In this document: positions 27,013 through 64,000 of the stretch, piece by piece
How the letters are laid out: every line of letters starts with the position of its first letter
Position numbering within the stretch: the first letter of the stretch is position 1
DNA from: Flectonema sp. DT1601
Lineage: Eukaryota; Euglenozoa; Diplonemea; Diplonemida; Diplonemidae
Assembly: GCA_964019425.1 (NCBI GenBank)
Contig: OZ025796.1
Location: 1,116,001 to 1,180,000 of the forward strand
Direction: 5' to 3'
DNA length: 64,000 bases
Notes under the pieces: model-generated
The model's input: only the letters and a program-made list of their open reading frames with translations
What the model was told of the DNA's origin: nothing
The model's database searches: none
Program-made: the position numbers and the translations under genes

Positions 27013-27044
<32 letters not shown>

Positions 27045-27224: not shown

Positions 27225-27255
<31 letters not shown>

Positions 27256-27261
27256 CTTATT

Positions 27262-31222: not shown

Positions 31223-31325
31223 GGTATCTTAAGTGTCTTGGTATCTCTTGTGTGTCGGTATCTCGGAAGTGCTGGTATCTCGTATGTGCGTTGGTATCTC
31301 TTGCGTGTTGGTATCTCTTGCACAT
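31223..31325. repeat. Minisatellite TGGTATCTCTTG, about six units
   Basis: Units of 16-18 bp (GGTATCTCTTGTGTGT-like) are repeated about six times with small changes. This lies inside the 3' region of L1, and I do not see it in the other LINE copies. Confidence 0.7.
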
Positions 31326-31369
31326 AATAAAAAAAAATATTGAGTTAACATGATCAGTTTTATTTATCA

Positions 31370-32140: not shown

Positions 32141-32518
32141 ATTCATTTACACTTTTTTTTTTTTTTTTTTTTTTAAATTAATAATCACATTTTGTTCAAA
32201 AATATTTCATATTAGAGTAAAAGAAAAAGAAAAAAAAGAAATAAGAGAAAAAAAAAAAAAAACCATTGCTGGCCCCCTCACCACTCATAGAGGATGAGGA
32301 GGCCAGTAAGGCGTCACTCAAATCTATGCCAAGCCTTGGGAACTTGGATTGGGGTTTAGACCATTTATAATTAACAATTAACAATTAACCAGATTAACGT
32401 TATGATCTGACGGACATAAACATATCGACAAAATAATACAAACAAAAACGAACAATAAATAATAAATAAGCTAAAAAACTAAATAAACAAAGTGATGTGA
32501 AAGTAAGGAAAAAGAGAA

Positions 32519-35500
32519 TTACAAGGGGGTGGAGTCACCGTGAACGTCATCAGCAGAACATCTCCTTCGATTGTAACGATATCTTGATGGAGGGGTTCGT
32601 TTTTTCAGAGTTGAACGCTCAGACTTTCTCGGCGGAGTTTCATTTTCCTCATGTTCTTCTGTGTCTGGCGGACTCAAACCTTCTGCCCATGAAGCTAATT
32701 GGAACTTCAGGGCCGCAATTTGAGACCGTGCCAAGGCGAGTTGAGCATTTAAATCGCTCGCCAGTCCCGTTAACATCATGGATTGCTCAAGCTGCTCTGC
32801 GTGAGTTGTACACCGTTGGTGATTCAGCTCCGAGAGGCGAAGTTGGGCATCCAGAAGTTGTTCTGAGAGCTCTGCCGCTTTCTCGTTTGTTTCGAGAGAG
32901 TCATCTACTGCTCGACAGTAATTCTCGAGTAAATCAATCCTACCCTCGGACCATTGTCTCGCAATAGGTGTATTCTCTTTAACGGAGATAACGTGACTCT
33001 CTTGTCGTAAAATCTTGGTCGGCGTGCGGTCGAGAGCTTCACTCTGCGGCATTGTCGGAGGAATTGAGGCTAGAGGACAAAGAGGGGTGATATAATTAAG
33101 GGTAGGGATAAGGGGTTTAATAAGAGGAGTAAAAAGACTACTCGTAGTTGTAAAGAGCGAGAGGTAGTTCTTTGCTATCTTCATCATAGCAACAGATTCA
33201 TACAGAACGGGGGTTCGGGGGGAAACTTGTTGACTAAAGTGGGTCATACGGGGACGCGCGGCACGCAAACTCTCGACCTCCTGTTGAGTATAGAAAAGTC
33301 TTATTTTACTTTCTCTTTCCTCATTACATTTGGTCTCCAATTCGTTCGACAGAAGAACAAACCTTTGATGGTAATTAAAGAGCGCCAATTCCGATAGGTC
33401 TGCTCTCTGAGTCAGATTTGCGAGCTCACGTTTCCTGTAATCTTCCACTAAGTCATATTGTCGAACTAGTGCAGAAAGAGAAGTCTTCGATTCATCGCGT
33501 TCTGCTGTTAACCGTTGAATTACTCCTTCCAGAAGTTCATATTCTTTTCTATCTTTTTCAATAATTAAAACAGGGGGCGCAGGAGGAAGTGAGGATGGAT
33601 CCTGGTTGGTAGCTTTGATCTCAACAGGTAATCCATTTAGTAACTGCTTGTCTTTCTCGAGGGAGGCTGACATCGCATTAAAGTAAAATAAAAATAGAAC
33701 ATAAAAAATTCGTTCTTTCATTTGCTCTAATTCGTTTTCTAAAATCTGGCATTTCAAGGAAAGTTTCAGCCTTAATTTTCCTTCTTTTTTTTTGTACAAG
33801 GGGGTTTGAGAACCCATGTCAGATTGAGTTCTTATCACTATAGCGAAATCAGCAGGAAGTGTTTGCGATCCCGTTGACATGAGTTCAGGTGGGGGAGTCT
33901 GGAAAGAGATGGAAGAAATAGAAGAGAATGACAAGGAGAGTCCAGTGAGCTCATCCTCATCTAACAAAACAGAAGGGGCCGGGGAGGAAGAACCATTGGC
34001 AATAAGTAGAATAGAAAGAGCCGATGCGTAACAAGTTTGCCAGATAAAACATTTCTCAAGCCACGATCTTTCAATGGTGAGCTTTTCGATCGTTTTCAGT
34101 TTTGTTACTTTGTGGATTTTGACTTCTTCCACAGGGAAGATTTCTTTACCATCTTTTATAAAACTTGCAGTGGCAGGTTCTTCTTTAATGCTGCGCATTA
34201 GTGGTCTTGAATGCCACGTGGGGAGGTTCCTCGTCTGGAACAGAACATATGAGCACTGTCTGGCGATTCTGGTGCATTCACAAAATAAAGCTTTTGTTGG
34301 TGCTAAAGGTGAACCGATGTGACGTGTCCAGATGTTCAGCTGGTCCATGCAGATGTTTCCTCGTACGCCAACTTCAATAGTAAAAATGTTACAGTCGAAG
34401 CCATTAGCGATGATCGAGTCTCTTAGCTTTAGGTATTTCTTTTCCTTTAAGACATGAGAGGTTTCGAAACGATCTTCATTTGGACACGTCAGCTCCAGAA
34501 TCAGTGCTCTTTTCGCAAAAAAAGAATAAATAAAAATGTCTGGTCTTAGAGAGGACGAGACATGGCACACTTCAAGAGGAACAATTAGGCGGTTATCACC
34601 GACATCGTCGAGGATGACCCAATCATTCGCTAGTGAAAGTTCGCCTGTCTCTTTAGAAATTCTTTCTAGGGGTTTATTTTCCCCTGTTTTTAAAAAAGTT
34701 TGAGAGGGAGGCGGGAGGTTTTCTTTTCTTTTGTTGGCTTTTATTATCAACTCTTCCAAGAAGATAACAATGCGTTTTAGAACGCTGTCGTGACGCCACG
34801 TGAACCTCCCTTGTGTTAAAGAGACAGGACAGCCTGTTAAGACATGCCTGAGGGTAGGATTCACTTTGCCACACAAAACACAATTTTGGTCCACATTGGT
34901 GATGTTCCACCTCTTTAAATTATCTTGTGAGGGGAGGGTGTTTGTAACCGCTTTCAGTTGAAATGAGATATAGGCAGGATTTCCCTCCCTAAGTACCTTA
35001 TTCCAGGTGAAGTCGTTTATCATACATTTAGACCACTCCTTCCACTGACCTTGGACTTGTAATTTATTCAAAGAGTTCAGTAGTTCATCTGTGGCTTCCA
35101 CTTCAAAACGCTTAAGGAGATCGGGGCGAGTAGTACGTAGATCGCGCAATCGGTGACCAAGACCAGCTGATTGCTTCGCAAGAGAACGGTAAGAAAAAAA
35201 CTTAATAAGGCGCTCCCACTCAGCAGAAGCTGAAAACTTTTTCGACCAGTTGGACGATTTCTCCATAATAACATTGTAGACACCGTGCATGTCAGAGTCC
35301 TGTGAGGATCTGAGGATGTCTAGTTTAATTGATTGCGCTTGTTTATATAGCGTCTCAACTCTTTTGTGTCTGAGACCAACAGTGTTCTTTGAACCGGTAA
35401 AAAGGATGACTGTGTTCGCAGAGCGGACAAATCCCCACCATTTCTTCAAAAAAGGTTTAATAATTTTGTCCATTTTTTTGGCAAAAGGGAGAGATAAGTC

Positions 35501-37645: not shown

Positions 37646-37801
37646 AGCCTCGGGGGCTGGGTTGGCTGAGAGATGGTTGCCAGTATCTTTATGACACCGC
37701 CGGCCCGGTGTTTCTTTTTTTTTTTGTTGTGAAGTAGCAATAATAAGAAAAAAAAAAAAAAATAGAAAAGAGAATGGCTCAGAAACAATATCGATGAGTT
37801 A

Positions 37802-38086
37802 AGATCTTTTTTTTTAAACTATTCCTTTTTTTTTTAATTTCGGGCAGCTAACCCTAGAGTTTTTTTTTGGTAAATACTGTTTAAAGGAAAACGAGCTACG
37901 CTCTAAAACAGAAAAATCGGAGTAACTACTTGTTTATAATATATATTTTGATAAATAATGTGGTTGGCAAATGAATGCCGAAGAGGCAACTTGAGAAAAG
38001 CAATTGGATGAGAAGAAACATTGGGTCTTATAAAGCAAAGGAGATAGAGGGGCCTAAAAAGACCGCAGAGTGGATAGCTCGCAGAG
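37802..38086 (-). other. 5' leader of L1
   Basis: This is the non-coding 5' end of the full-length LINE. A TTTATAAGA motif lies about 55 nt from the 5' boundary and could be a TATA box. The first 35 nt repeat CTCTGCG twice. The GC-rich near-palindrome CACCGGGCCGGCGGTG occurs further in (about 37,695-37,711). No rDNA-like or ribozyme fold could be proven by eye. Confidence 0.5.
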
Positions 38087-38456: not shown

Positions 38457-39915
38457 GAGTTGAGTTTACCAGGTGAGATTTGGACTGTTAGCTTTTGGCT
38501 AAGGCCCTCCCTGAAGAGCAAGAACAAAAAAACTACTCACACCTGAAGAAAACATACACAAAGAACACACTGTAAGCTGTGTGTGTATTTTGTGTTTGTC
38601 ACAACAGGAGAGAAAAGAAAGAATGTCAAGGTTGGTCACCTTGCCTATCAACGCACAACATTGGTGGTCTCTACTAGACCCTGAGTGATCCCACTGGATC
38701 TCTCATCGTTCATAGTACCCTGTGTGAAGTTATAAAATCAAAGGTAAACTATGAACTACAAATGACTTAGCCTGTTATTATAATGCCACAGGCAGGCCCT
38801 GCATTCAGCAACTATCCAGCAGTGCTAGGATGTCCTGATCTTCTTCTAAAAAAAAGAAAGAAAAACAAAACTGTAGCTGGGATCACTCAGGATCAACAGA
38901 CTACCAATGCTACCTGTTGTACTTGCTCACTATGGGGGGTGATGCCAAACACCCAGAAGTACTTAACTACTTTCCTTCTTGCTGCCCAGGAGTTTCTGAC
39001 CAGAACTAATAGAAAATAAAAAGTAGATGGGAAATAATAAAAAGTAAAATGAATATAACTGAAGTTAAACAAGACAAATGAGGTAACAGACCAGAACAGA
39101 TAGAGAATAAAAATAAAAGATATAGGCAAGAATGATTGTAGTGAAAGATTACAAATAAAAAAAATGCAAGATCAACACATGATCAAGATACACCAGCAGC
39201 TAACAAACAACATAAAATTGAAGATCAGTTGCCAGAGTATTTCAACCATGGTAGAATACTCGCCCCTCTGGCAGGGATTATCCCAGACTTGTCCTTTAAT
39301 CTAGTTGGACACCATGGCTTACAACCCTTCCAGAGGGAAGCACCATTATGACTTCTATTTTTTTTCTTCAAGAAAATCATAAGGTGGGAACAAAGAAAAA
39401 TGCTAAGAGGAACCCCTTATTAACACCTAAGACATCTAAACTGCAGCCCAGCTTATGCCCAATGCACTAACAGGTCATTCCCTCACACTCAGATCAAAAA
39501 ATCAAAGTTCAGAGTGCATCTTAGCGTGAATGAGAGAATTTCCTCCCGCTTTTTTTGAACAAAAGGGATAGGAGAAGGGATAGAAAACGAACATAACAAT
39601 AAGATTCTAAGTGAGGAACACTTAGCAGAAATACTTAGCAGCTTTTAAGGAGCTGAAAAGCAAAAAAAAAATCTAAGTGAGAAACACTTAGTAGAAACAC
39701 TTTGTAGCTAATTGAGCTGAAAATAAAAAAATAAAAAAATTTCTAAGTGAGAGATACTTAGCAACTTTTAGAACAAATATTTCAGTAAATAACCTGTTGA
39801 AATGGTAGTTAATGTAACCATTACAGGTTTGATGCCAATACTGACAAAGACTGAGTTGAGTTTACCAGGTGAGATTTGGACTGTTAGCTTTTGGCTAAGG
39901 CCCTCCCTGAAGAGC
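38457..39915 (-). mobile_element. Partner element P, copy 3, in piggyBac
   Basis: The fixed 3' end is at 38,457. The copy runs the whole unit and ends, on its 5' side, with a second partial 3' module (about 39,853-39,915). This is the structure expected if the RNA template was a tandem or circular P transcript. Three perfect CTAAGTG-loop-CACTTAG-type hairpins are near its 5' side. The 145-bp segment found in the array units is absent. Confidence 0.85.
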
Positions 39916-40382: not shown

Positions 40383-40844
40383 AAAATAAATAAAAAGAAT
40401 TTAAAAAAAAAAAAAAAAAAAAAAAGAATAAACGAAAAAAAAAAAATTTCGATAAAGTGGGAAGTAACGGACTGGGAGCTTTTGGCTCCTGCCCTATTCC
40501 CGATGTAAACTTTCTTTTTATTTTTTTTTTTTTTTTTAACAGGCCCAAAGGGCGACAATGATGGTTGCTGACCAAGGAATAATATTCAAATGAATTTTCG
40601 TTTCAAAGAAACGAACAGAATTAAGAGAGAGGTAGAGAAAAAAAAAAAAAAAAAAAAGAAAGAATAGAAAAAAAATATGAAGAGGAAATAATCAAACATG
40701 AAAAAAAAAAGAAAAAAAAAATATAAATAAAAAACGTTGTATGAAAAAGGAAAAAAAAGAAAAAAAAAAAAAAAAGACCAGAAAAGGAAAGAGAAAATGA
40801 AAAGGTATAATATTATTGTGGGGATATGAGGATAGCAGGGAGAT

Positions 40845-40879
<35 letters not shown>

Positions 40880-42626
40880 TTATTATTTAAAAAAAGGAAA
40901 CAATCAGTTTAGCGTCTCGATCAGGACGGAAAATAGAAATTAATCGACATAGTCGATCGATAGAAAAAAAAACAATGATAACATTGTTTATTCCTTTTTT
41001 TTTTTTTTTTTTTTTATTCTTTTTATTTATTTTTAAAGAAAAAACAATCAGTTTAGCGTCTTGACCAGGACGGAAAATAGAAAGTGATCGACATAGTCGA
41101 TCGATAAAAAGACAATGATAACATTGTTTATTCTTTTTTTTTTTTTTTTTTTAAATTCTTTTTATTTATTTTTAAAGAAAAAAAAACGGAAAATAAAAAT
41201 TAGTCGACAAAGTCGAACGATAAAAAAAAACAATGATAAGAGTTGAATTTCCAGGTGAGATTTGGACTGTTAGCTTTTGGCTAAGGCCCTCCCTGAAGAG
41301 CAAGAACAAAAAAACTACTCACACCTGAAGAAAACATACACAAAGAACACACTGTAAGCTGTGTGTGTATTTTGTGTTTGTCACAACAGGAGAGAAAAGA
41401 AAGAATGTCAAGGTTGGTCACCTTGCCTATCAACGCACAACATTGGTGGTCTCTACTAGACCCTGAGTGATCCCACTGGATCTCTCATCGTTCATAGTAC
41501 CCTGTGTGAAGTTATAAAATCAAAGGTAAACTATGAACTACAAATGACTTAGCCTGTTATTATAATGCCACAGGCAGGCCCTGCATTCAGCAACTATCCA
41601 GCAGTGCTTGGATGTCCTGATCTTCTTCTAAAAAAAAGAAAGAAAAACAAAACTGTAGCTGGGATCACTCAGGATCAACAGACTACCAATGCTACCTGTT
41701 GTACTTGCTCACTATGGGGGGTGATGCCAAACACCCAGAAGTACTAAACTACTTTCCTTCTTGCTGCCCAGGAGTTTCTGACCAGAACTAATAGAAAATA
41801 AAAAGTAGATGGGAAACAATAAAAAGTAAAATGGATATAACTGAAGTTAAACAAGACAAATGAAGTAACAGACCAGAACAGAAAGAGAATTGTAATAGAA
41901 GATTACAAATAAGAAAATGCAAGTATCAACACATAATCAAGATACACCAGCAGCTAACAAACAACATAAAATTGAAGATCAGTTGCCAGAGTATTTCAAC
42001 CATGGTAGAATACTCGCCCCTCTGGCAGGGATTATCCCAGACTTGTCCTTTAATTTAGTTGGACACCATGGTTGTTTATTCTTTTTTTTTTTTGTTTTTT
42101 TTTATATTCTTTTTTATTAATTTTGAAAAAAAAACAATCAGTTTAGCGTCTTGACCAGGACGGAAAATAGAAAGTGATCGACATAGTCGATCGATAAAAA
42201 GACAATGATAACATTGTTTATTCTTTTTTTTTTTTTTTTTTTAAATTCTTTTTATTTATTTTTAAAGAAAAAAAAACGGAAAATAAAAATTAGTCGACAA
42301 AGTCGAACGATAAAAAAAAAACAATGATAACATTGTTTATTCTTTTTTTTTTTGTTTTTTTTTATATTCTTTTTTATTAATTTTGAAAAAAAAACAATCA
42401 GTTTAGCGTCTTGACCAGGACGGAAAATAGAAAGTAATCGACATAGTCGATCGATAAAAAAAAAACAATGATAACATTGTTTACTCTTTTTTTTTTTTTT
42501 TTTTAAATTCTTTTTATTTTAAAAAGAAAAAAAACGGAAAATAGAAATTAGTCAACAAAGTCGAACGATAAAAAAAAAACAATGATAACATTGTTTATTC
42601 TTTTTTTTTTATTTTTTTATATTCTT
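40383..42626 (-). mobile_element. LINE copy L4, 3' region only, with P inside
   Basis: A short stretch of L2 satellite (40,383 to about 40,434) comes first. Then the LINE 3' terminus begins (AATTTCGATAAAGTGGG at about 40,446), followed by the 400-bp A/T block, satellite on the minus strand, P copy 4 (41,240-42,071), and more satellite to 42,626. There the satellite flips back to the plus strand. This is a 5'-truncated LINE insertion of about 1.35 kb without P, lying in the L2 satellite. Confidence 0.7.
41240..42071 (-). mobile_element. Partner element P, copy 4
   Basis: The 3' end GAGTTGAATTTCCAGG (minus-strand end) is at 41,240. The 5' end is truncated at ACACCATGG (42,071). It sits inside the satellite dyad ACAATGATAACATTGTT with three target bases lost. 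Confidence 0.85.
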
Positions 42627-45087: not shown

Positions 45088-46247
45088 GTTGAATTTCCAG
45101 GTGAGATTTGGACTGTTAGCTTTTGGCTAAGGCCCTCCCTGAAGAGCAAGAACAAAAAAACTACTCACACCTGAAGAAAACATACACAAAGAACACACTG
45201 TTAGCTGTGTGTGTATTTTGTGTTTGTCACAACAGGAGAGAAAAGAAAGAATGTCAAGGTTGGTCACCTTGCCTATCAACGCACAACATTGGTGGTCTCT
45301 ACTAGACCCTGAGTGATCCCACTGGATCTCTCATCGTTCATAGTACCTATGTGAAGTTATAAAATCAAAGGTAAACTATGAACTACAAATGACTTAGCCT
45401 GTTATTATAATGCCACAGGCAGGCCCTGCATTCAGCAACTATCCAGCAGTGCTAGGATGTCCTGATCTTCTTCTAAAAAAAAGAAAGAAAAACAAAACTG
45501 TAGCTGGGATCACTCAGGATCAACAGACTACCAATGCTACCTGTTGTACTTGCTCACTATGGGGGGTGATGCCAAACACCCAGAAGTACTAAACTGCTTT
45601 CCTTCTTGCTGCCCAGGAGTTTCTGACCAGAACTAATAGAAAATAAAAAGTAGATGGGAAACAATAAAAAGTAAAATGGATATAACTGAAGTTAAACAAG
45701 ACAAATGAAGTAACAGACCCGAACAGAAAGAGAATTGTAATAGAAGATTACAAATAAAAAAATGCAAGTATCAACACATGATCAGGATACACCAGCAGCT
45801 AACAAACAACATAAAATTGAAGATCAGTTGCCAGAGTATTTCAACCATGGTAGAATACTCGCCCCTCTGGCAGGGATTATCCCAGACTTGTCCTTTAATT
45901 TAGTTGGACACCATGGCTTACAACCCTTCCAGAGGGAAGCACCATTATGACTTCTATTTTTTTTCTTCAAGAAAATCATAAGGTGGGAACAAAGAAAAAT
46001 GCTAAGAGGAACCCCCTATTAACACCTAAGACATCTAAACTGCAGCCCAGCCTATGCCCAATGCACTAACAGGTCATTCCCTCACACTCAGATCAAAAAA
46101 TCAAAGTTCAGAGTGCATCTTAGCGTGAATGAGAGAATTTCCTCCCGCTTATTTTGAACAAAAGGGATAGGAGAAGGGATAGAAAACGAACATAAAAATA
46201 AAATTCTAAGTGAGAAACACTTAGCAGAAACACTTAGCAGCTTTTAA
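45088..46247 (-). mobile_element. Partner element P, copy 5, with exact ends
   Basis: The uninterrupted sequence in L1 gives the empty site, so both ends are known to the base. The 3' end (minus strand) reads CTCACCTGG then AAATTCAAC, with no poly(A). The 5' end is truncated at TTAAAAGCTGC. Length 1,160 bp. The fixed 3' end, variable 5' end and 11-bp duplication show target-primed insertion like a LINE or SINE. There is no ORF of note on the sense strand. Confidence 0.9.
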
Positions 46248-47027: not shown

Positions 47028-47664
47028 ACTCATTGTTTTTTTTTTTTATTGTTCGACTTTGTTGACTAATTTCTATTTTCCGTTTTTTTTTTTTCTTTTT
47101 AAAAAATAAATAAAAAGAATTTAAAAAAAAAAAAAAAAAAAAGAATAAACAATGTTATCATTGTTTTTTTTTTCATCGATCGACTATGTCGATTACTTTC
47201 TATTTTCCGTCCTGGTCAAGACGCTAAACTGATTGTTTTTTTTCAAAATTAATAAAAAAGAATATAAAAAAAAAACAAAAACAAAAAGAATAAACAATGC
47301 TATCATTGTTTTTTTTTTATCGTTCGACTTTGTCGACTAATTTTTATTTTCCGTTTTTTTTTCTTTAAAAATAAATAAAAAGAAATTAAAAAAAAAAAAA
47401 AAAAAAAAGAATAAACAATGTTATCATTGTTTTTTTAGCGATCGACTATGTCGATCACTTTCTATTTTCCGTCCTGGTCAAGAAGCTAAACTGATTGTTT
47501 TTTCTTTAAAATAATAAAAAGGATTAAAAAAAAAAAAAAAAAAAAAAAAAAGAATAAACAATGTTATCATTGTTTTTTATCGATCGACTATGTCGATCAC
47601 TTTCTATTTTCCGTCCTGGTCAAGACGCTAAACTGATTGTTTTTTCTTTAAAAAATAATTAAAA

Positions 47665-47702
<38 letters not shown>

Positions 47703-47960
47703 TTAATCAATGTTATCATTGTTTTTTTTATCGATCGACTATGTCGATCACTTTCAATTTTCCGTCCTGGTCAGGACGCTAAACTGATTGTTTTTTCTTT
47801 AAAAATAAATGAAAAGAACAAAAAAAAAAAAAAAAAAAAAAGGAATAAACAATGTTATCATTGTTTTTTTTTTATCGATCGACTATGTCGATTACTTTCT
47901 ATTTTCCGTCCTGGTCAAGACGCTAAACTGATTGTTTTTTCTTTAAAATAATTAAAAGGG

Positions 47961-47991
<31 letters not shown>

Positions 47992-48512
47992 ATAAACAAT
48001 GTTATCATTGTTTTTTTTCTATCGATCGACTATGTCGATTAATTTCTATTTTCCGTCCTGATCGAGACGCTAAACTGATTGTTTCCTTTTTTTAAATAAT
48101 AAAAAAAAAAAAAAAAGAGCATCTCCCTGCTATCCTCATATCCCCACAATAATATTATACCTTTTCATTTTCTCTTTCCTTTTCTGGTCTTTTTTTTTCT
48201 TTTTTTCCTTTTTCATACAACGTTTTTTATTTATATATTTTTTTTTTTTTTTTTTTCATGTTTGATTATTTCCTCTTCATATTTTTTTTTTTCTATTCTT
48301 TCTTTTTTTTTTTTTTTTTTCTCTGCCTCTCTCTCAATTCTGTTCGTTTCTTTGAAACGAAAATTCATTTGAATATTATTCCTTGGTCAGCAACCATCAT
48401 TGTCGCCCTTTGGGCCTGTTAAAAAAAAAAATAAAAATAAAAAGAAAGTTTACATCGGGAATAGGGCAGGAGCCAAAAGCTCCCAGTCCGTTACTTCCCA
48501 CTTATCGAAATT
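47028..48512 (+). mobile_element. LINE copy L5, 3' region only, inside L3
   Basis: Satellite (about seven or eight monomers), then the 400-bp A/T block, then the terminal hairpin and CTTATCGAAATT. The insertion joins L3 coding sequence with no gain or loss of target bases (CCCACTATC on the left, CCTTTTGAAG on the right), so no target-site duplication is seen. It proves that the satellite and the terminal block travel with the LINE 3' end. Confidence 0.85.
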
Positions 48513-49888
48513 CCTTTTGAAGTTGGTGTCTTTCAAGGCTGCGTTTCCTCCCCAACCCTTTTTAATTTGGTATTCCAACTACTGCTCTTTTCCTTAGCAG
48601 TTCATCAACAGGAAGCCTACGAGTTTAACAATAAATCCCTCCAACTATTAGTTGCAGCTTTTGCTGATGATTTACAACTTACCACGTCATCAAAGGCGGG
48701 GGCAAAATTGCTAATCAAGTCGCTCGAACAGTTTCTTTCCTGGTCTCGTGGTATGAAAGCGAAACCCCAGAAATGCATTGCCCACAGCTTTGTACAAGGG
48801 AAACCAGCTAACCCGGACCTGAAGATTAACAATGTTCCGATTACGAATCTCCAGGAAGCTGGAGAGTTCAAATACCTCGGGCGTTGGTTTGAGCCGAACG
48901 CCAAAGAACAGAAATTGCGAGAGCGCCTGACCACTTTTACCAGGAATTTTTTAAAAAAAGTCGACGCCATGCCACTATATGGGTCTCAGAAGGCTTGGTC
49001 TGTCCAACACTTGTTATTGTCAAGGTTAACATGGAGTTTAATGATCCATGACTTATCTCTCCCTTTTGCCAAAAAAATGGACAAAATTATTAAACCTTTT
49101 TTGAAGAAATGGTGGGGATTTGTCCGCTCTGCGAACACAGTCATCCTTTTTACCGGTTCAAAGAACACTGTTGGTCTCAGACACAAAAGAGTTGAGACGC
49201 TATATAAACAAGCGCAATCAATTAAACTAGACATCCTCAGATCCTCACAGGACTCTGACATGCACGGTGTCTACAATGTTATTATGGAGAAATCGTCCAA
49301 CTGGTCGAAAAAGTTTTCAGCTTCTGCTGAGTGGGAGCGCCTTATTAAGTTTTTTTCTTACCGTTCTCTTGCGAAGCAATCAGCTGGTCTTGGTCACCGA
49401 TTGCGCGATCTACGTACTACTCGCCCCGATCTCCTTAAGCGTTTTGAAGTGGAAGCCACAGATGAACTACTGAACTCTTTGAATAAATTACAAGTCCAAG
49501 GTCAGTGGAAGGAGTGGTCTAAATGTATGATAAACGACTTCACCTGGAATAAGGTACTTAGGGAGGGAAATCCTGCCTATATCTCATTTCAACTGAAAGC
49601 GGTTACAAACACCCTCCCCTCACAAGATAATTTAAAGAGGTGGAACATCACCAATGTGGACCAAAATTGTGTTTTGTGTGGCAAAGTGAATCCTACCCTC
49701 AGGCATGTCTTAACAGGCTGTCCTGTCTCTTTAACACAAGGGAGGTTCACGTGGCGTCACGACAGCGTTCTAAAACGCATTGTTATCTTCTTGGAAGAGT
49801 TGATAATAAAAGCCAACAAAAGAAAAGAAAACCTCCCGCCTCCCTCTCAAACTTTTTTAAAAACAGGGGAAAATAAACCCCTAGAAAG

Positions 49889-49921
49889 AATGATTGTTTT
49901 TTCTTTAAAACAATTAAAAAG

Positions 49922-49956
<35 letters not shown>

Positions 49957-51651: not shown

Positions 51652-54600
51652 TGTTTCTTCATTTTTTTACATTAATAATTACATTTTGTTCAAAAAGAAA
51701 AAAAAAGAAAAAAGATTTCATATTAGAAACCAGGAAACTAGGTTAACACTTAGTTAAAATTAAGACCGGTTAGTCAGTTTAAGGTCTTGTCTAGGACCAA
51801 CATTCTTGTTTAACTTCAGTTATATTCATTTTACTTTTTATTGTTTCCCATCTACTTTTTATTTTCTATTAGTTCTGGTCAGAAACTCCTGGGCAGCAAG
51901 AAGGAAAGTAGTTAAGTACTTCTGGGTGTTTGGCATCACCCCCCATAGTGAGCAAGTACAACAGGTAGCATTGGTAGTCTGTTGATCCTGAGTGATCCCA
52001 GCTACAGTTTTGTTTTTCTTTCTTTTTTTTAGAAGAAGATCAGGACATTCAAGCACTGCTGGATAGTTGCTGAATGCAGGGCCTGCCTGTGGCATTATAA
52101 TAACAGGCTAAGTCATTTGTAGTTCATAGTTTACCTTTGATTTTATAACTTCACATAGGGTACTATGAACGATGAGAGATCCAGTGGGATCACTCAGGGT
52201 CTAGTAGAGACCACCAATGTTGTGCGTTGATAGGCAAGGTGACCAACCTTGACATTCTTTCTTTTCTCTCCTGTTGTGACAAACACAAAATACACACACA
52301 GCTTACAGTGTGTTCTTTGTGTATGTTTTCTTCAGGTGTGAGTAGTTTTTTTGTTCTTGCTCTTCAGGGAGGGCCTTAGCCAAAAGCTAACAGTCCAAAT
52401 CTCACCTGGTAAACTCAACTCAGTCTTTGTCAGTATTGGCATCAAACCTGTAATGGTTACATTAACTACCATTTCAACAGGTTATTTACTGAAATATTTG
52501 TTCTAAAAGTTGCTAAGTATCTCTCACTTAGAAATTTTTTTATTTTTTTATTTTCAGCTCAATTAGCTACAAAGTGTTTCTACTAAGTGTTTCTCACTTA
52601 GATTTTTTTTTTGCTTTTCAGCTCCTTAAAAGCTGCTAAGTATTTCTGCTAAGTGTTTCTCACTTAGAATCTTATTGTTATGTTCGTTTTCTATCCCTTC
52701 TCCTATCCCTTTTGTTCAAAAAAAGCGGGAGGAAATTCTCTCATTCATGCTAAGATGCACTCTGAACTTTGATTTTTTTGATCTGAGTGTGAGGGAATGA
52801 CCTGTTAGTGCATTGGGCATAAGCTGGGCTGCAGTTTAGATGTCTTAGGTGTTAATAAGGGGTTCCTCTTAGCATTTTTCTTTGTTACCACCTTATGATT
52901 TTCTTGAAGAAAAAAAATAGAAGTCATAATGGTGCTTCCCTCTGGAAGGGTTGTAAGCCATGGTGTCCAACTAAATTAAAGGACAAGTCTGGGATAATCC
53001 CTGCCAGAGGGGCGAGTATTCTACCATGGTTGAAATACTCTGGCAACTGATCTTCAATTTTATGTTGTTTGTTAGCTGCTGGTGTATCTCGATCATGTGT
53101 TGATACTTGCATTTTTTTTTTTATTTGTAATCTTTTACTACAATAACTCTTGCAATTATCTTTTCTTTTTTATTCTCTATCTGTTCTGGTCTGTTTCTTC
53201 ATTTTTTTACATTAATAATTACATTTTGTTCAAAAAGAAAAAAAAAGAAAAAAGATTTCATATTAGAAACCAGGAAACTAGGTTAACACTTAGTTAAAAT
53301 TAAGACCGGTTAGTCAGTTTAAGGTCTTGTCTAGGACCAACATTCTTGTTTAACTTCAGTTATATTCATTTTACTTTTTATTGTTTCCCATCTACTTTTT
53401 ATTTTCTATTAGTTCTGGTCAGAAACTCCTGGGCAGCAAGAAGGAAAGTAGTTAAGTACTCCTGGGTGTTTGGCATCACCCCCCATAGTGAGCAAGTACA
53501 ACAGGTAGCATTGGTAGTCTGTTGATCCTGAGTGATCCCAGCTACAGTTTTGTTTTTCTTTCTTTTTTTTAGAAGAAGATCAGGACATTCAAGCACTGCT
53601 GGATAGTTGCTGAATGCAGGGCCTGCCTGTGGCATTATAATAACAGGCTAAGTCATTTGTAGTTCATAGTTTACCTTTGATTTTATAACTTCACATAGGG
53701 TACTATGAACGATGAGAGATCCAGTGGGATCACTCAGGGTCTAGTAGAGACCACCAATGTTGTGCGTTGATAGGCAAGGTGACCAACCTTGACATTCTTT
53801 CTTTTCTCTCCTGTTGTGACAAACACAAAATACACACACAGCTTACAGTGTGTTCTTTGTGTATGTTTTCTTCAGGTGTGAGTAGTTTTTTTGTTCTTGC
53901 TCTTCAGGGAGGGCCTTAGCCAAAAGCTAACAGTCCAAATCTCACCTGGTAAACTCAACTCAGTCTTTGTCAGTATTGGCATCAAACCTGTAATGGTTAC
54001 ATTAACTACCATTTCAACAGGTTATTTACTGAAATATTTGTTCTAAAAGTTGCTAAGTATCTCTCACTTAGAAATTTTTTTATTTTTTTATTTTCAGCTC
54101 AATTAGCTACAAAGTGTTTCTACTAAGTGTTTCTCACTTAGATTTTTTTTTTGCTTTTCAGCTCCTTAAAAGCTGCTAAGTATTTCTGCTAAGTGTTTCT
54201 CACTTAGAATCTTATTGTTATGTTCGTTTTCTATCCCTTCTCCTATCCCTTTTGTTCAAAAAAAGCGGGAGGAAATTCTCTCATTCATGCTAAGATGCAC
54301 TCTGAACTTTGATTTTTTTGATCTGAGTGTGAGGGAATGACCTGTTAGTGCATTGGGCATAAGCTGGGCTGCAGTTTAGATGTCTTAGGTGTTAATAAGG
54401 GGTTCCTCTTAGCATTTTTCTTTGTTACCACCTTATGATTTTCTTGAAGAAAAAAAATAGAAGTCATAATGGTGCTTCCCTCTGGAAGGGTTGTAAGCCA
54501 TGGTGTCCAACTAAATTAAAGGACAAGTCTGGGATAATCCCTGCCAGAGGGGCGAGTATTCTACCATGGTTGAAATACTCTGGCAACTGATCTTCAATTT

Positions 54601-57600
54601 TATGTTGTTTGTTAGCTGCTGGTGTATCTCGATCATGTGTTGATACTTGCATTTTTTTTTTTATTTGTAATCTTTTACTACAATAACTCTTGCAATTATC
54701 TTTTCTTTTTTATTCTCTATCTGTTCTGGTCTGTTTCTTCATTTTTTTACATTAATAATTACATTTTGTTCAAAAAGAAAAAAAAAGAAAAAAGATTTCA
54801 TATTAGAAACCAGGAAACTAGGTTAACACTTAGTTAAAATTAAGACCGGTTAGTCAGTTTAAGGTCTTGTCTAGGACCAACATTCTTGTTTAACTTCAGT
54901 TATATTCATTTTACTTTTTATTGTTTCCCATCTACTTTTTATTTTCTATTAGTTCTGGTCAGAAACTCCTGGGCAGCAAGAAGGAAAGTAGTTAAGTACT
55001 CCTGGGTGTTTGGCATCACCCCCCATAGTGAGCAAGTACAACAGGTAGCATTGGTAGTCTGTTGATCCTGAGTGATCCCAGCTACAGTTTTGTTTTTCTT
55101 TCTTTTTTTTAGAAGAAGATCAGGACATTCAAGCACTGCTGGATAGTTGCTGAATGCAGGGCCTGCCTGTGGCATTATAATAACAGGCTAAGTCATTTGT
55201 AGTTCATAGTTTACCTTTGATTTTATAACTTCACATAGGGTACTATGAACGATGAGAGATCCAGTGGGATCACTCAGGGTCTAGTAGAGACCACCAATGT
55301 TGTGCGTTGATAGGCAAGGTGACCAACCTTGACATTCTTTCTTTTCTCTCCTGTTGTGACAAACACAAAATACACACACAGCTTACAGTGTGTTCTTTGT
55401 GTATGTTTTCTTCAGGTGTGAGTAGTTTTTTTGTTCTTGCTCTTCAGGGAGGGCCTTAGCCAAAAGCTAACAGTCCAAATCTCACCTGGTAAACTCAACT
55501 CAGTCTTTGTCAGTATTGGCATCAAACCTGTAATGGTTACATTAACTACCATTTCAACAGGTTATTTACTGAAATATTTGTTCTAAAAGTTGCTAAGTAT
55601 CTCTCACTTAGAAATTTTTTTATTTTTTTATTTTCAGCTCAATTAGCTACAAAGTGTTTCTACTAAGTGTTTCTCACTTAGATTTTTTTTTTGCTTTTCA
55701 GCTCCTTAAAAGCTGCTAAGTATTTCTGCTAAGTGTTTCTCACTTAGAATCTTATTGTTATGTTCGTTTTCTATCCCTTCTCCTATCCCTTTTGTTCAAA
55801 AAAAGCGGGAGGAAATTCTCTCATTCATGCTAAGATGCACTCTGAACTTTGATTTTTTTGATCTGAGTGTGAGGGAATGACCTGTTAGTGCATTGGGCAT
55901 AAGCTGGGCTGCAGTTTAGATGTCTTAGGTGTTAATAAGGGGTTCCTCTTAGCATTTTTCTTTGTTACCACCTTATGATTTTCTTGAAGAAAAAAAATAG
56001 AAGTCATAATGGTGCTTCCCTCTGGAAGGGTTGTAAGCCATGGTGTCCAACTAAATTAAAGGACAAGTCTGGGATAATCCCTGCCAGAGGGGCGAGTATT
56101 CTACCATGGTTGAAATACTCTGGCAACTGATCTTCAATTTTATGTTGTTTGTTAGCTGCTGGTGTATCTCGATCATGTGTTGATACTTGCATTTTTTTTT
56201 TTATTTGTAATCTTTTACTACAATAACTCTTGCAATTATCTTTTCTTTTTTATTCTCTATCTGTTCTGGTCTGTTTCTTCATTTTTTTACATTAATAATT
56301 ACATTTTGTTCAAAAAGAAAAAAAAAGAAAAAAGATTTCATATTAGAAACCAGGAAACTAGGTTAACACTTAGTTAAAATTAAGACCGGTTAGTCAGTTT
56401 AAGGTCTTGTCTAGGACCAACATTCTTGTTTAACTTCAGTTATATTCATTTTACTTTTTATTGTTTCCCATCTACTTTTTATTTTCTATTAGTTCTGGTC
56501 AGAAACTCCTGGGCAGCAAGAAGGAAAGTAGTTAAGTACTTCTGGGTGTTTGGCATCACCCCCCATAGTGAGCAAGTACAACAGGTAGCATTGGTAGTCT
56601 GTTGATCCTGAGTGATCCCAGCTACAGTTTTGTTTTTCTTTCTTTTTTTTAGAAGAAGATCAGGACATTCAAGCACTGCTGGATAGTTGCTGAATGCAGG
56701 GCCTGCCTGTGGCATTATAATAACAGGCTAAGTCATTTGTAGTTCATAGTTTACCTTTGATTTTATAACTTCACATAGGGTACTATGAACGATGAGAGAT
56801 CCAGTGGGATCACTCAGGGTCTAGTAGAGACCACCAATGTTGTGCGTTGATAGGCAAGGTGACCAACCTTGACATTCTTTCTTTTCTCTCCTGTTGTGAC
56901 AAACACAAAATACACACACAGCTTACAGTGTGTTCTTTGTGTATGTTTTCTTCAGGTGTGAGTAGTTTTTTTGTTCTTGCTCTTCAGGGAGGGCCTTAGC
57001 CAAAAGCTAACAGTCCAAATCTCACCTGGTAAACTCAACTCAGTCTTTGTCAGTATTGGCATCAAACCTGTAATGGTTACATTAACTACCATTTCAACAG
57101 GTTATTTACTGAAATATTTGTTCTAAAAGTTGCTAAGTATCTCTCACTTAGAAATTTTTTTATTTTTTTATTTTCAGCTCAATTAGCTACAAAGTGTTTC
57201 TACTAAGTGTTTCTCACTTAGATTTTTTTTTTGCTTTTCAGCTCCTTAAAAGCTGCTAAGTATTTCTGCTAAGTGTTTCTCACTTAGAATCTTATTGTTA
57301 TGTTCGTTTTCTATCCCTTCTCCTATCCCTTTTGTTCAAAAAAAGCGGGAGGAAATTCTCTCATTCATGCTAAGATGCACTCTGAACTTTGATTTTTTTG
57401 ATCTGAGTGTGAGGGAATGACCTGTTAGTGCATTGGGCATAAGCTGGGCTGCAGTTTAGATGTCTTAGGTGTTAATAAGGGGTTCCTCTTAGCATTTTTC
57501 TTTGTTACCACCTTATGATTTTCTTGAAGAAAAAAAATAGAAGTCATAATGGTGCTTCCCTCTGGAAGGGTTGTAAGCCATGGTGTCCAACTAAATTAAA

Positions 57601-60600
57601 GGACAAGTCTGGGATAATCCCTGCCAGAGGGGCGAGTATTCTACCATGGTTGAAATACTCTGGCAACTGATCTTCAATTTTATGTTGTTTGTTAGCTGCT
57701 GGTGTATCTCGATCATGTGTTGATACTTGCATTTTTTTTTTTATTTGTAATCTTTTACTACAATAACTCTTGCAATTATCTTTTCTTTTTTATTCTCTAT
57801 CTGTTCTGGTCTGTTTCTTCATTTTTTTACATTAATAATTACATTTTGTTCAAAAAGAAAAAAAAAGAAAAAAGATTTCATATTAGAAACCAGGAAACTA
57901 GGTTAACACTTAGTTAAAATTAAGACCGGTTAGTCAGTTTAAGGTCTTGTCTAGGACCAACATTCTTGTTTAACTTCAGTTATATTCATTTTACTTTTTA
58001 TTGTTTCCCATCTACTTTTTATTTTCTATTAGTTCTGGTCAGAAACTCCTGGGCAGCAAGAAGGAAAGTAGTTAAGTACTTCTGGGTGTTTGGCATCACC
58101 CCCCATAGTGAGCAAGTACAACAGGTAGCATTGGTAGTCTGTTGATCCTGAGTGATCCCAGCTACAGTTTTGTTTTTCTTTCTTTTTTTTAGAAGAAGAT
58201 CAGGACATTCAAGCACTGCTGGATAGTTGCTGAATGCAGGGCCTGCCTGTGGCATTATAATAACAGGCTAAGTCATTTGTAGTTCATAGTTTACCTTTGA
58301 TTTTATAACTTCACATAGGGTACTATGAACGATGAGAGATCCAGTGGGATCACTCAGGGTCTAGTAGAGACCACCAATGTTGTGCGTTGATAGGCAAGGT
58401 GACCAACCTTGACATTCTTTCTTTTCTCTCCTGTTGTGACAAACACAAAATACACACACAGCTTACAGTGTGTTCTTTGTGTATGTTTTCTTCAGGTGTG
58501 AGTAGTTTTTTTGTTCTTGCTCTTCAGGGAGGGCCTTAGCCAAAAGCTAACAGTCCAAATCTCACCTGGTAAACTCAACTCAGTCTTTGTCAGTATTGGC
58601 ATCAAACCTGTAATGGTTACATTAACTACCATTTCAACAGGTTATTTACTGAAATATTTGTTCTAAAAGTTGCTAAGTATCTCTCACTTAGAAATTTTTT
58701 TATTTTTTTATTTTCAGCTCAATTAGCTACAAAGTGTTTCTACTAAGTGTTTCTCACTTAGATTTTTTTTTTGCTTTTCAGCTCCTTAAAAGCTGCTAAG
58801 TATTTCTGCTAAGTGTTTCTCACTTAGAATCTTATTGTTATGTTCGTTTTCTATCCCTTCTCCTATCCCTTTTGTTCAAAAAAAGCGGGAGGAAATTCTC
58901 TCATTCATGCTAAGATGCACTCTGAACTTTGATTTTTTTGATCTGAGTGTGAGGGAATGACCTGTTAGTGCATTGGGCATAAGCTGGGCTGCAGTTTAGA
59001 TGTCTTAGGTGTTAATAAGGGGTTCCTCTTAGCATTTTTCTTTGTTACCACCTTATGATTTTCTTGAAGAAAAAAAATAGAAGTCATAATGGTGCTTCCC
59101 TCTGGAAGGGTTGTAAGCCATGGTGTCCAACTAAATTAAAGGACAAGTCTGGGATAATCCCTGCCAGAGGGGCGAGTATTCTACCATGGTTGAAATACTC
59201 TGGCAACTGATCTTCAATTTTATGTTGTTTGTTAGCTGCTGGTGTATCTCGATCATGTGTTGATACTTGCATTTTTTTTTTTATTTGTAATCTTTTACTA
59301 CAATAACTCTTGCAATTATCTTTTCTTTTTTATTCTCTATCTGTTCTGGTCTGTTTCTTCATTTTTTTACATTAATAATTACATTTTGTTCAAAAAGAAA
59401 AAAAAAGAAAAAAGATTTCATATTAGAAACCAGGAAACTAGGTTAACACTTAGTTAAAATTAAGACCGGTTAGTCAGTTTAAGGTCTTGTCTAGGACCAA
59501 CATTCTTGTTTAACTTCAGTTATATTCATTTTACTTTTTATTGTTTCCCATCTACTTTTTATTTTCTATTAGTTCTGGTCAGAAACTCCTGGGCAGCAAG
59601 AAGGAAAGTAGTTAAGTACTTCTGGGTGTTTGGCATCACCCCCCATAGTGAGCAAGTACAACAGGTAGCATTGGTAGTCTGTTGATCCTGAGTGATCCCA
59701 GCTACAGTTTTGTTTTTCTTTCTTTTTTTTAGAAGAAGATCAGGACATTCAAGCACTGCTGGATAGTTGCTGAATGCAGGGCCTGCCTGTGGCATTATAA
59801 TAACAGGCTAAGTCATTTGTAGTTCATAGTTTACCTTTGATTTTATAACTTCACATAGGGTACTATGAACGATGAGAGATCCAGTGGGATCACTCAGGGT
59901 CTAGTAGAGACCACCAATGTTGTGCGTTGATAGGCAAGGTGACCAACCTTGACATTCTTTCTTTTCTCTCCTGTTGTGACAAACACAAAATACACACACA
60001 GCTTACAGTGTGTTCTTTGTGTATGTTTTCTTCAGGTGTGAGTAGTTTTTTTGTTCTTGCTCTTCAGGGAGGGCCTTAGCCAAAAGCTAACAGTCCAAAT
60101 CTCACCTGGTAAACTCAACTCAGTCTTTGTCAGTATTGGCATCAAACCTGTAATGGTTACATTAACTACCATTTCAACAGGTTATTTACTGAAATATTTG
60201 TTCTAAAAGTTGCTAAGTATCTCTCACTTAGAAATTTTTTTATTTTTTTATTTTCAGCTCAATTAGCTACAAAGTGTTTCTACTAAGTGTTTCTCACTTA
60301 GATTTTTTTTTTGCTTTTCAGCTCCTTAAAAGCTGCTAAGTATTTCTGCTAAGTGTTTCTCACTTAGAATCTTATTGTTATGTTCGTTTTCTATCCCTTC
60401 TCCTATCCCTTTTGTTCAAAAAAAGCGGGAGGAAATTCTCTCATTCATGCTAAGATGCACTCTGAACTTTGATTTTTTTGATCTGAGTGTGAGGGAATGA
60501 CCTGTTAGTGCATTGGGCATAAGCTGGGCTGCAGTTTAGATGTCTTAGGTGTTAATAAGGGGTTCCTCTTAGCATTTTTCTTTGTTACCACCTTATGATT

Positions 60601-63600
60601 TTCTTGAAGAAAAAAAATAGAAGTCATAATGGTGCTTCCCTCTGGAAGGGTTGTAAGCCATGGTGTCCAACTAAATTAAAGGACAAGTCTGGGATAATCC
60701 CTGCCAGAGGGGCGAGTATTCTACCATGGTTGAAATACTCTGGCAACTGATCTTCAATTTTATGTTGTTTGTTAGCTGCTGGTGTATCTCGATCATGTGT
60801 TGATACTTGCATTTTTTTTTTTATTTGTAATCTTTTACTACAATAACTCTTGCAATTATCTTTTCTTTTTTATTCTCTATCTGTTCTGGTCTGTTTCTTC
60901 ATTTTTTTACATTAATAATTACATTTTGTTCAAAAAGAAAAAAAAAGAAAAAAGATTTCATATTAGAAACCAGGAAACTAGGTTAACACTTAGTTAAAAT
61001 TAAGACCGGTTAGTCAGTTTAAGGTCTTGTCTAGGACCAACATTCTTGTTTAACTTCAGTTATATTCATTTTACTTTTTATTGTTTCCCATCTACTTTTT
61101 ATTTTCTATTAGTTCTGGTCAGAAACTCCTGGGCAGCAAGAAGGAAAGTAGTTAAGTACTTCTGGGTGTTTGGCATCACCCCCCATAGTGAGCAAGTACA
61201 ACAGGTAGCATTGGTAGTCTGTTGATCCTGAGTGATCCCAGCTACAGTTTTGTTTTTCTTTCTTTTTTTTAGAAGAAGATCAGGACATTCAAGCACTGCT
61301 GGATAGTTGCTGAATGCAGGGCCTGCCTGTGGCATTATAATAACAGGCTAAGTCATTTGTAGTTCATAGTTTACCTTTGATTTTATAACTTCACATAGGG
61401 TACTATGAACGATGAGAGATCCAGTGGGATCACTCAGGGTCTAGTAGAGACCACCAATGTTGTGCGTTGATAGGCAAGGTGACCAACCTTGACATTCTTT
61501 CTTTTCTCTCCTGTTGTGACAAACACAAAATACACACACAGCTTACAGTGTGTTCTTTGTGTATGTTTTCTTCAGGTGTGAGTAGTTTTTTTGTTCTTGC
61601 TCTTCAGGGAGGGCCTTAGCCAAAAGCTAACAGTCCAAATCTCACCTGGTAAACTCAACTCAGTCTTTGTCAGTATTGGCATCAAACCTGTAATGGTTAC
61701 ATTAACTACCATTTCAACAGGTTATTTACTGAAATATTTGTTCTAAAAGTTGCTAAGTATCTCTCACTTAGAAATTTTTTTATTTTTTTATTTTCAGCTC
61801 AATTAGCTACAAAGTGTTTCTACTAAGTGTTTCTCACTTAGATTTTTTTTTTGCTTTTCAGCTCCTTAAAAGCTGCTAAGTATTTCTGCTAAGTGTTTCT
61901 CACTTAGAATCTTATTGTTATGTTCGTTTTCTATCCCTTCTCCTATCCCTTTTGTTCAAAAAAAGCGGGAGGAAATTCTCTCATTCATGCTAAGATGCAC
62001 TCTGAACTTTGATTTTTTTGATCTGAGTGTGAGGGAATGACCTGTTAGTGCATTGGGCATAAGCTGGGCTGCAGTTTAGATGTCTTAGGTGTTAATAAGG
62101 GGTTCCTCTTAGCATTTTTCTTTGTTACCACCTTATGATTTTCTTGAAGAAAAAAAATAGAAGTCATAATGGTGCTTCCCTCTGGAAGGGTTGTAAGCCA
62201 TGGTGTCCAACTAAATTAAAGGACAAGTCTGGGATAATCCCTGCCAGAGGGGCGAGTATTCTACCATGGTTGAAATACTCTGGCAACTGATCTTCAATTT
62301 TATGTTGTTTGTTAGCTGCTGGTGTATCTCGATCATGTGTTGATACTTGCATTTTTTTTTTTATTTGTAATCTTTTACTACAATAACTCTTGCAATTATC
62401 TTTTCTTTTTTATTCTCTATCTGTTCTGGTCTGTTTCTTCATTTTTTTACATTAATAATTACATTTTGTTCAAAAAGAAAAAAAAAGAAAAAAGATTTCA
62501 TATTAGAAACCAGGAAACTAGGTTAACACTTAGTTAAAATTAAGACCGGTTAGTCAGTTTAAGGTCTTGTCTAGGACCAACATTCTTGTTTAACTTCAGT
62601 TATATTCATTTTACTTTTTATTGTTTCCCATCTACTTTTTATTTTCTATTAGTTCTGGTCAGAAACTCCTGGGCAGCAAGAAGGAAAGTAGTTAAGTACT
62701 TCTGGGTGTTTGGCATCACCCCCCATAGTGAGCAAGTACAACAGGTAGCATTGGTAGTCTGTTGATCCTGAGTGATCCCAGCTACAGTTTTGTTTTTCTT
62801 TCTTTTTTTTAGAAGAAGATCAGGACATTCAAGCACTGCTGGATAGTTGCTGAATGCAGGGCCTGCCTGTGGCATTATAATAACAGGCTAAGTCATTTGT
62901 AGTTCATAGTTTACCTTTGATTTTATAACTTCACATAGGGTACTATGAACGATGAGAGATCCAGTGGGATCACTCAGGGTCTAGTAGAGACCACCAATGT
63001 TGTGCGTTGATAGGCAAGGTGACCAACCTTGACATTCTTTCTTTTCTCTCCTGTTGTGACAAACACAAAATACACACACAGCTTACAGTGTGTTCTTTGT
63101 GTATGTTTTCTTCAGGTGTGAGTAGTTTTTTTGTTCTTGCTCTTCAGGGAGGGCCTTAGCCAAAAGCTAACAGTCCAAATCTCACCTGGTAAACTCAACT
63201 CAGTCTTTGTCAGTATTGGCATCAAACCTGTAATGGTTACATTAACTACCATTTCAACAGGTTATTTACTGAAATATTTGTTCTAAAAGTTGCTAAGTAT
63301 CTCTCACTTAGAAATTTTTTTATTTTTTTATTTTCAGCTCAATTAGCTACAAAGTGTTTCTACTAAGTGTTTCTCACTTAGATTTTTTTTTTGCTTTTCA
63401 GCTCCTTAAAAGCTGCTAAGTATTTCTGCTAAGTGTTTCTCACTTAGAATCTTATTGTTATGTTCGTTTTCTATCCCTTCTCCTATCCCTTTTGTTCAAA
63501 AAAAGCGGGAGGAAATTCTCTCATTCATGCTAAGATGCACTCTGAACTTTGATTTTTTTGATCTGAGTGTGAGGGAATGACCTGTTAGTGCATTGGGCAT

Positions 63601-64000
63601 AAGCTGGGCTGCAGTTTAGATGTCTTAGGTGTTAATAAGGGGTTCCTCTTAGCATTTTTCTTTGTTACCACCTTATGATTTTCTTGAAGAAAAAAAATAG
63701 AAGTCATAATGGTGCTTCCCTCTGGAAGGGTTGTAAGCCATGGTGTCCAACTAAATTAAAGGACAAGTCTGGGATAATCCCTGCCAGAGGGGCGAGTATT
63801 CTACCATGGTTGAAATACTCTGGCAACTGATCTTCAATTTTATGTTGTTTGTTAGCTGCTGGTGTATCTCGATCATGTGTTGATACTTGCATTTTTTTTT
63901 TTATTTGTAATCTTTTACTACAATAACTCTTGCAATTATCTTTTCTTTTTTATTCTCTATCTGTTCTGGTCTGTTTCTTCATTTTTTTACATTAATAATT
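51652..64000 (+). repeat. Tandem array of P, eight 1,540-bp units, runs off window
   Basis: The period is 1,540 bp by exact position: units start at 51,652, 53,192, 54,732, 56,272, 57,812, 59,352, 60,892 and 62,432, and a ninth begins at 63,972. I found one difference among the units: a C instead of T at 53,461 and 55,001 (units two and three). Even the A/T runs keep their length. The sense strand is plus; the 3' module with TTAGC-CAAAA-GCTAA lies at 52,374-52,388 in unit one. Each unit also holds a segment of about 145 bp (51,652 to about 51,805) not found in the dispersed copies. Short frames in the unit are not conserved genes. Confidence 0.95.

What the first reader, a model, noticed from the sequence alone, without database searches (positions are those of the whole stretch)
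52360..52420. LINE and non-coding P share a 3' hairpin with compensated stem changes
In sense orientation both end in an AGC-CAAAA-GCT hairpin followed by CAGTCC and then a C-rich stretch. Over the 21 aligned bases 17 agree. The four that differ are GG/CC in the LINE and TT/AA in P, which pair with each other: two compensated base pairs. This is what is expected if one reverse transcriptase recognises both RNAs, as known for LINE/SINE pairs that share 3' tails. Outside this hairpin the two ends are different.
Basis: partly seen in the sequence, partly recalled or inferred. Interest (0 to 1): 0.92.

Follow-up and report, generated by a model that had tools for sequence, protein, structure and literature searches.

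The report
Shared 3' RNA fold, three retroelements
A reverse-transcriptase-encoding element and two non-coding repeat families in one eukaryotic genome end in the same predicted RNA fold, with stem letters changed in matched pairs, as expected if the one enzyme copies all three.

Summary
The LINE ends in GGAGC-CAAAA-GCTCC-CAGTCC, P in TTAGC-CAAAA-GCTAA-CAGTCC; 17 of 21 bases agree and the four differences are two compensated pairs. Of 2,463 genomic matches to the core, 1,242 are GG/CC, 1,206 TT/AA and 15 neither. (1) The shared part is larger: LINE and P tails fold separately into the same three-helix structure (inner hairpin; GGGC/GTCC stem; 3' bulge; outer stem of different letters), and the last bases are alike. 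(2) A third non-coding family, Q (12 copies, 9 distinct flanks), ends in GTGGC-CAAAA-GTCAC-CAGTCC with its own outer stem and the same fold. (3) Two places join a LINE tail to a P 5' start, one exactly, one with extra bases. The LINE encodes an R2-type reverse transcriptase with restriction-like endonuclease motifs; P has no ORF over 78 aa. Most likely the LINE enzyme recognises the 3' fold and mobilises P and Q; this is inferred, not shown. Compensated stems in shared LINE/SINE-type tails are known (plant L1/SINE, Drosophila R2/SIDE), so this is a new, unusually clear member of a known kind.

The parts
26821..38077 (-). LINE copy, near full length: ORF, AT-rich 3' UTR with ~263-bp satellite repeats, unique 0.4-kb tail, 3' fold
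   Evidence: ORF, 3' region, satellites and tail in one line; 5' start matches other copies from about 38077. A nested truncated copy inside the satellites cannot be excluded.
32519..37645 (-). LINE ORF, 1708 aa: N-terminal C2H2-like fingers, RT, CCHC knuckle, restriction-like endonuclease motif RPD..ELT..E..K, long C-terminal extension
   Evidence: Pfam RVT_1 3.3e-26 and zf-RVT; best PDB matches R2 retrotransposon protein; invariant residues in 11 proteins
26821..26878 (-). LINE 3' fold and tail end, GG/CC stem (hairpin and CAGTCC 26846-26866)
40445..40501 (-). LINE 3' fold and tail end, GG/CC stem (hairpin and CAGTCC 40469-40489)
47028..48513 (+). 1,486-bp 5'-truncated LINE copy inserted in another LINE ORF; 3' fold 48457-48499, hairpin and CAGTCC 48469-48489
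52365..52421 (+). P 3' fold and tail end: outer stem 52365-52370/52402-52408, GGGC 52371-52374/GTCC 52393-52396, inner hairpin 52376-52390, 5-nt bulge 52397-52401
51652..64000 (+). head-to-tail P array, 1540-bp unit, units at least 99.9% identical; first copy starts inside P, last is cut by the window end
38482..39898 (-). 60-nt P mini-copy joined end to end with a long P copy; tails 39878-39898 and 38482-38502
21535..21615 (-). P tail followed directly by a second, 60-nt P copy
45110..45130 (-). P tail, TT/AA stem; this copy shows a 9-bp target duplication
41264..41284 (-). P tail, TT/AA stem
19043..19063 (-). P tail, TT/AA stem

Best explanation
The LINE protein (R2-like RT plus restriction-like endonuclease) recognises a three-helix fold at the 3' end of its own RNA and starts target-primed reverse transcription just 3' of it. 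Two non-coding RNA families, P and Q, carry the same fold with different stem letters and are copied in trans. Shown by sequence: the compensated changes, the predicted common fold, precise 3' termini with different flanks, 5' truncation with mostly few or no duplicated target bases, and LINE/P junctions. Inferred: that the LINE protein is the binder, that shape rather than letters is read in the stems, and that the junctions arose by template jumping.
For: Same fold predicted separately for LINE (z -2.5 to -3.5), P (z +0.1 to -1.9, by variant and trimming) and Q (z -2.8). On the 26-nt core 54 of 54 cells pair, covariation 0.452 against 0.237 shuffled, 6 cells with two-sided change against 2.1, each 0 of 500 shuffles as high. 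Each family's 5' strand pairs fully only with its own 3' strand: inner 5/5 against 3-4/5, outer 5/5 or 4/4 against 1-3. 1,242 and 1,206 copies. Q: 12 copies with 9 distinct flanks. LINE tail joined to P start exactly at C69:330550 and with extra bases at C5:810337. Mini-copies of about 45 nt (LINE), 47 and 60 nt (P) are little more than the fold and end. R2 relation and RLE motif. LINE ORF and tail in one line in the window and at C69, and tails spaced by whole LINE units on C1.
Against: Only three families, so few independent changes: in the core test 3 pairs with two-sided change (78 of 500 shuffles as high) and 6 further pair types (178 of 500) are not exceptional. P folds no better than shuffles in the longer constructs (60 to 95 of 200 as good). 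Only two LINE/P junctions were found, against 39 P/P among 43 listed starts, and the P-tail/LINE-start search found none. Whether LINE and P at C69 went in together is unresolved. The same signs would fit a shared RNA 3'-end-forming signal. Other RT families abound (759 RVT_1 candidates, 150 scored) and their 3' ends were not examined.
Confidence: 0.8

Rival explanations
1. The fold is an RNA 3'-end-forming or stabilising signal that the three transcripts share; it sets the 3' terminus, and the RT then copies any such RNA without binding the fold.
For: Copies of each family end within a few bases of one place. No regular poly(A) tail is seen at the listed ends.
Against: A processing signal alone does not make an RT accept the RNA; R2 protein is reported to bind its 3' UTR to start reverse transcription (PMC3414825, passages). 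That an RT-encoding element is among the three carriers would be a coincidence.
Confidence: 0.12
2. P and Q are moved by another RT of this genome, and the tail resemblance to the LINE is a relic.
For: Many other RT copies exist; their 3' ends were not examined.
Against: No further tail family in the two exclusion searches; LINE/P junctions; LINE and P are both abundant with many near-identical copies.
Confidence: 0.05
3. Tails are alike only through recent common descent or DNA-level exchange; the paired changes are chance.
For: 17 of 21 bases agree; P carries pieces related to the LINE 3' UTR in mixed orientation.
Against: 0.03% chance for the paired pattern between LINE and P; Q adds changes in inner and outer stems, with a random chance of both pairing of about 8e-4.
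Confidence: 0.03

Closest known systems
R2 and R2 SIDEs of Drosophila
   Same: R2-type RT; non-autonomous partner shares the predicted 3' fold with compensatory changes; in vivo template jumps (PMC3414825, passages only)
   Different: SIDEs are described as internally deleted R2 (or R2/R1) elements in 28S genes; P and Q have other bodies, lie at many sites, and P forms head-to-tail arrays
Plant L1-clade LINE and ZmSINE2/SINE2 pairs
   Same: About 50-nt related 3' end, hairpin with compensatory stem changes, conserved loop and 3' flank (PMC3747384, section 16)
   Different: L1 clade rather than RLE; tRNA-type SINEs; a hairpin rather than the three helices seen here
Entamoeba EhLINE/EhSINE and R4-1_ED pairs
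   Same: SINE-like partners of unknown promoter with LINEs in a single-celled eukaryote (PMC3747384, Table 1; that these LINEs are RLE-type is recalled and suggested by the name EhRLE)
   Different: The part read says nothing on compensated stems there

Membership tests
RLE-type LINE (R2-like) | ORF with RT related to R2 | tested here: met
   RVT_1 3.3e-26; R2 chains are best PDB hits, single sequence 4.1e-32, profile 9.1e-65; LINE-1 ORF2 also matches, more weakly
RLE-type LINE (R2-like) | Restriction-like endonuclease after a CCHC knuckle | tested here: met
   C922, C925, H934, C939 and R1034-P1035-D1036, E1051-L1052-T1053, E1057, K1067 invariant in 11 sequences; weak second-domain match to R2, i-Evalue 0.011; that this is the RLE signature is recalled
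RLE-type LINE (R2-like) | N-terminal zinc fingers | tested here: inconclusive
   CPLC..H..C and CPDC..H..C spacings seen by eye in P0001; no domain search hit
R2 proper | Insertion at the R2 site of 28S rRNA genes | tested here: not met
   LINE tails have many unrelated flanks, including P and LINE sequence
LINE/SINE-type partner pair, stringent type | Non-coding partner shares the LINE's 3' end | tested here: met
   P and Q tails; P longest ORF 78 aa; coding content of Q was not tested
LINE/SINE-type partner pair, stringent type | Partner moved by the LINE's enzyme | not testable with these tools
   Only indirect: LINE/P junctions
SINE | Pol III promoter (tRNA, 5S or 7SL head) | tested here: inconclusive
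   No tRNA gene in 4 of the 12 Q loci scanned; P and other promoter types were not tested

The most novel reading that the evidence does not exclude
The LINE enzyme reads a three-helix shape with few fixed letters and jumps end to end between RNAs that carry it, so that head-to-tail P and LINE series and LINE/P hybrids are made in one reaction, and P satellite-like arrays begin as such jumps.
Probability: 0.4. Interest if true: 0.65.

Novelty: new member of a known kind. Interest (0 to 1): 0.5.

Why it matters
Three families with matched stem changes in one genome, two of them in over a thousand copies each, make a natural mutant set for the question of what an R2-type enzyme reads at an RNA 3' end: shape or letters. 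The fixed positions (loop CAAAA, CAGTCC, GGGC) against the swapped stems give a direct list of what to test. If the LINE/P junctions are template jumps, they tie the two RNAs to one reaction.

Tried and rejected
Twister-type ribozyme in the LINE 3' UTR and Q (a recalled resemblance of GTCTAAACCCCAAT..TTCCCAAGG..GAGGGG): among Rfam matches at E up to 5 there was no ribozyme, only chance-level hits (5, 2); dropped. Known RNAs in the window: none at gathering threshold; the P unit gave two chance-level hits. Other loop types: one search found one match without a matching stem, and its reversed-pattern control found two. Host name: not obtained; the UNC-93-like protein has one listed relative besides itself, 72% identical, from an unnamed EukProt transcriptome (capped at 8,000 candidates). 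Claim that all full-length copies follow a tail: rejected; 39 of 43 listed P starts on C1-C5 (of 599 exact in the genome) follow an exact P tail, of the other four one follows a mini P tail, one a 16-nt P stub, one a LINE tail, one none; the window LINE start does not follow a LINE tail. Claim that insertions never duplicate target: rejected; one P has a 9-bp duplication and the window LINE has TCCTAATCCA on both sides. Claim that no copy is shorter than the fold: not made, since copies were found by the hairpin itself. The MAFFT alignment with outer stems (A2) misplaced them and was not counted. No structure prediction and no covariance model was run.

Full report
Setting. The window is C17:1116001-1180000 of an unnamed assembly of 89.5 Mb in 92 contigs. 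It holds an RT-encoding element on the minus strand (ORF 32519-37645, 1708 aa), a second copy in pieces on the plus strand (ORFs 46419-47069 and 48567-49961), AT-rich satellites, and from 51652 to the end a head-to-tail array of a 1540-bp unit, P. P has no ORF over 78 aa.

The observation. TTAGCCAAAAGCTAACAGTCC lies at 52376-52396. The window has 18 hairpins of this core, 0 in 100 shuffles; 3 have GG/CC and 15 TT/AA. In the genome the core occurs 2,463 times: 1,242 GG/CC, 1,206 TT/AA, 15 others by subtraction. Four of these were seen; at least two of the four are mini-copies whose first stem bases appear to come from the target. The tool calls counts of repeats lower bounds. Copies are not independent, so this shows that source elements are in one of two states, not 2,448 separate events.

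The larger fold. LINE and P tails were folded separately. Both give an inner 5-bp hairpin with loop CAAAA, a 1x2 internal loop, a 4-bp GGGC/GTCC stem, a 5-nt bulge on the 3' side, and an outer stem. The outer stem is GGGAA/TTCCC in the LINE and CAGGGA/TC-A-CCTG in P. The LINE fold is better than most shuffles (z -2.8 and -2.5 for two variants, -3.5 when trimmed). P is weak: z -0.5, -0.1 and +0.1 for three end variants, -1.9 when trimmed. The last bases are also alike: LINE ...CACTTTATCGAAATTC or CACCTTTTCGAAATTC, P ...CACCTGGAAATTCAACTC and variants.

A third family. A pattern that fixes GGGC, CAAAA and CAGTCC and excludes the two known stems gave 14 matches in the genome: one P variant, one LINE variant and 12 copies of a new element, Q. 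Q has GTGGC/GTCAC and an outer stem TGACA/TGTCA with a 3-nt bulge, and folds the same way (z -2.8). Eleven of 12 copies continue with ATATGTCATTCAAACCGACTTC or a small variant; one, L065, departs after ATATGT. The bases beyond fall into 9 distinct flanks; three copies on C80 share one and two on C69 share one. So this is a 3' terminus. A search for other loops found one match without a matching stem.

Statistics. On six distinct rows of the 26-nt core all 54 cells pair, against 88.7% in shuffles (0 of 500 as high); covariation 0.452 against 0.237 (0 of 500); cells with two-sided change 6 against 2.1 (0 of 500). Pairs with two-sided change, 3 against 1.6 (78 of 500), and further pair types, 6 against 5.1 (178 of 500), are not exceptional. 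Sliding the partner by 1 to 3 columns drops pairing to 24-56%. The rows are three families plus three single variants, so the test is small. The cross-pairing table shows full pairing only within a family.

What the LINE is. The best PDB matches are R2 proteins: 9nl2 at 4.1e-32 for the single sequence, 9nl3 at 9.1e-65 for the profile of P0001 and 10 relatives. An RPD..ELT..E..K signature, which I recall as that of the restriction-like endonuclease, is invariant among those 11, and a weak second match covers the R2 C-terminal region (i-Evalue 0.011). Fifty-nine copies are listed at 100% (rounded) identity over 762-763 residues, one with a stop (59 of 743 candidates scored), so the family looks young. 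LINE ORF, 3' UTR, satellites and GG/CC tail lie in one line in the window and at C69; a nested truncated copy within the satellites cannot be excluded in either. On C1, tails bound LINE units of 10,561 and 10,824 bases (coordinates), and each of those tails is followed by the LINE 5' start.

Insertion style. Empty sites were sought for 63 distinct tails (34 LINE, 24 P, 5 Q); 28 gave a candidate. I judge 13 clear (7 LINE, 6 P, no Q): 12 show at most 3 bp of duplication and 0 to 3 bp of loss, one P shows a 9-bp duplication. The other 15 lie in repeats or AT-rich stretches and were left out; among them three show apparent losses of 7 to 16 bp and several show apparent duplications of 10 to 30 bp that are probably matches to neighbouring copies. 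Copies are cut at varied 5' points and share the 3' end. Copies of about 45 nt (LINE) and 47 nt (P), and 60-nt P copies joined to other P copies, are little more than the fold and tail end; they were found by their hairpin, so shorter ones would be missed.

Junctions. Of 43 P starts listed on C1-C5 (599 exact in the genome), 39 follow an exact P tail, 38 of them 29 or 30 bases after the hairpin match and one 89. The other four: a P mini-tail, a 16-nt P stub, a LINE tail and no tail. A genome search for LINE tail joined to P start found one exact case, C69:330550, with a P that runs through to its tail, behind a LINE copy that extends back into its ORF; the right flank is LINE ORF sequence, and the left end was not resolved. 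The second case, C5:810337, has CACTC between the two, and its P is recognisable only for about 300 bases. The reverse order, P tail to LINE start, was not found by an exact pattern. Template jumping is reported for R2 (PMC3414825 and PMC5678591, passages) and would explain these joins and the 16-nt stub; unequal exchange would explain the long uniform arrays equally well or better.

Known work. Shared 3' tails of LINEs and SINEs, the idea that the LINE enzyme reads them, and compensatory changes in such hairpins are in print (PMC3747384, passages, sections 7 and 16, and part 1 of section 21). In Drosophila willistoni R2 and its SIDE share a predicted 3' fold, with differences largely in loops or compensatory (PMC3414825, passages). 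LINEs with SINE-like partners are listed for Entamoeba (PMC3747384, Table 1).

Verdict. The best explanation is one R2-type enzyme serving three RNAs through a common 3' fold. It is a strong new example of a known kind; what is missing is any direct test of the enzyme.

Noticed in passing
L058:834-1151: One Q copy carries a piece of eukaryotic large-subunit rRNA inside the element (Rfam RF02543, E 5.7e-84; Q alignment), perhaps a template switch.
   Followed up: partly
window 32290-32400 (-) and L053 (turned) 1200-1300: LINE 3' UTR and Q share GTCTAAACCCCAAT-hairpin-TTCCCAAGG..GAGGGG, with different hairpin stems (CCAAG/CTTGG, CTGAG/CTCAG, by eye); no ribozyme match in Rfam.
   Followed up: partly
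window 32519-34200 (-): The LINE protein has a C-terminal extension of over 500 residues, in part coiled-coil-like by eye, that the 10 aligned relatives lack.
   Followed up: no
proteins P0047 and P0035: Relatives of this LINE protein in the protein search carry a DarT or a ubiquitin hydrolase domain beside the RT.
   Followed up: no
window 51652-64000: The P array units are at least 99.9% identical, so the array is very recent or homogenised.
   Followed up: partly
P unit 806-1024 (window 53202-53420 and repeats): P holds pieces related to the LINE 3' UTR, some in opposite orientation.
   Followed up: no
L052 (turned) 2100-3026: Downstream of a Q copy, a stretch that by eye would encode a GIY-YIG-like nuclease.
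   Followed up: no
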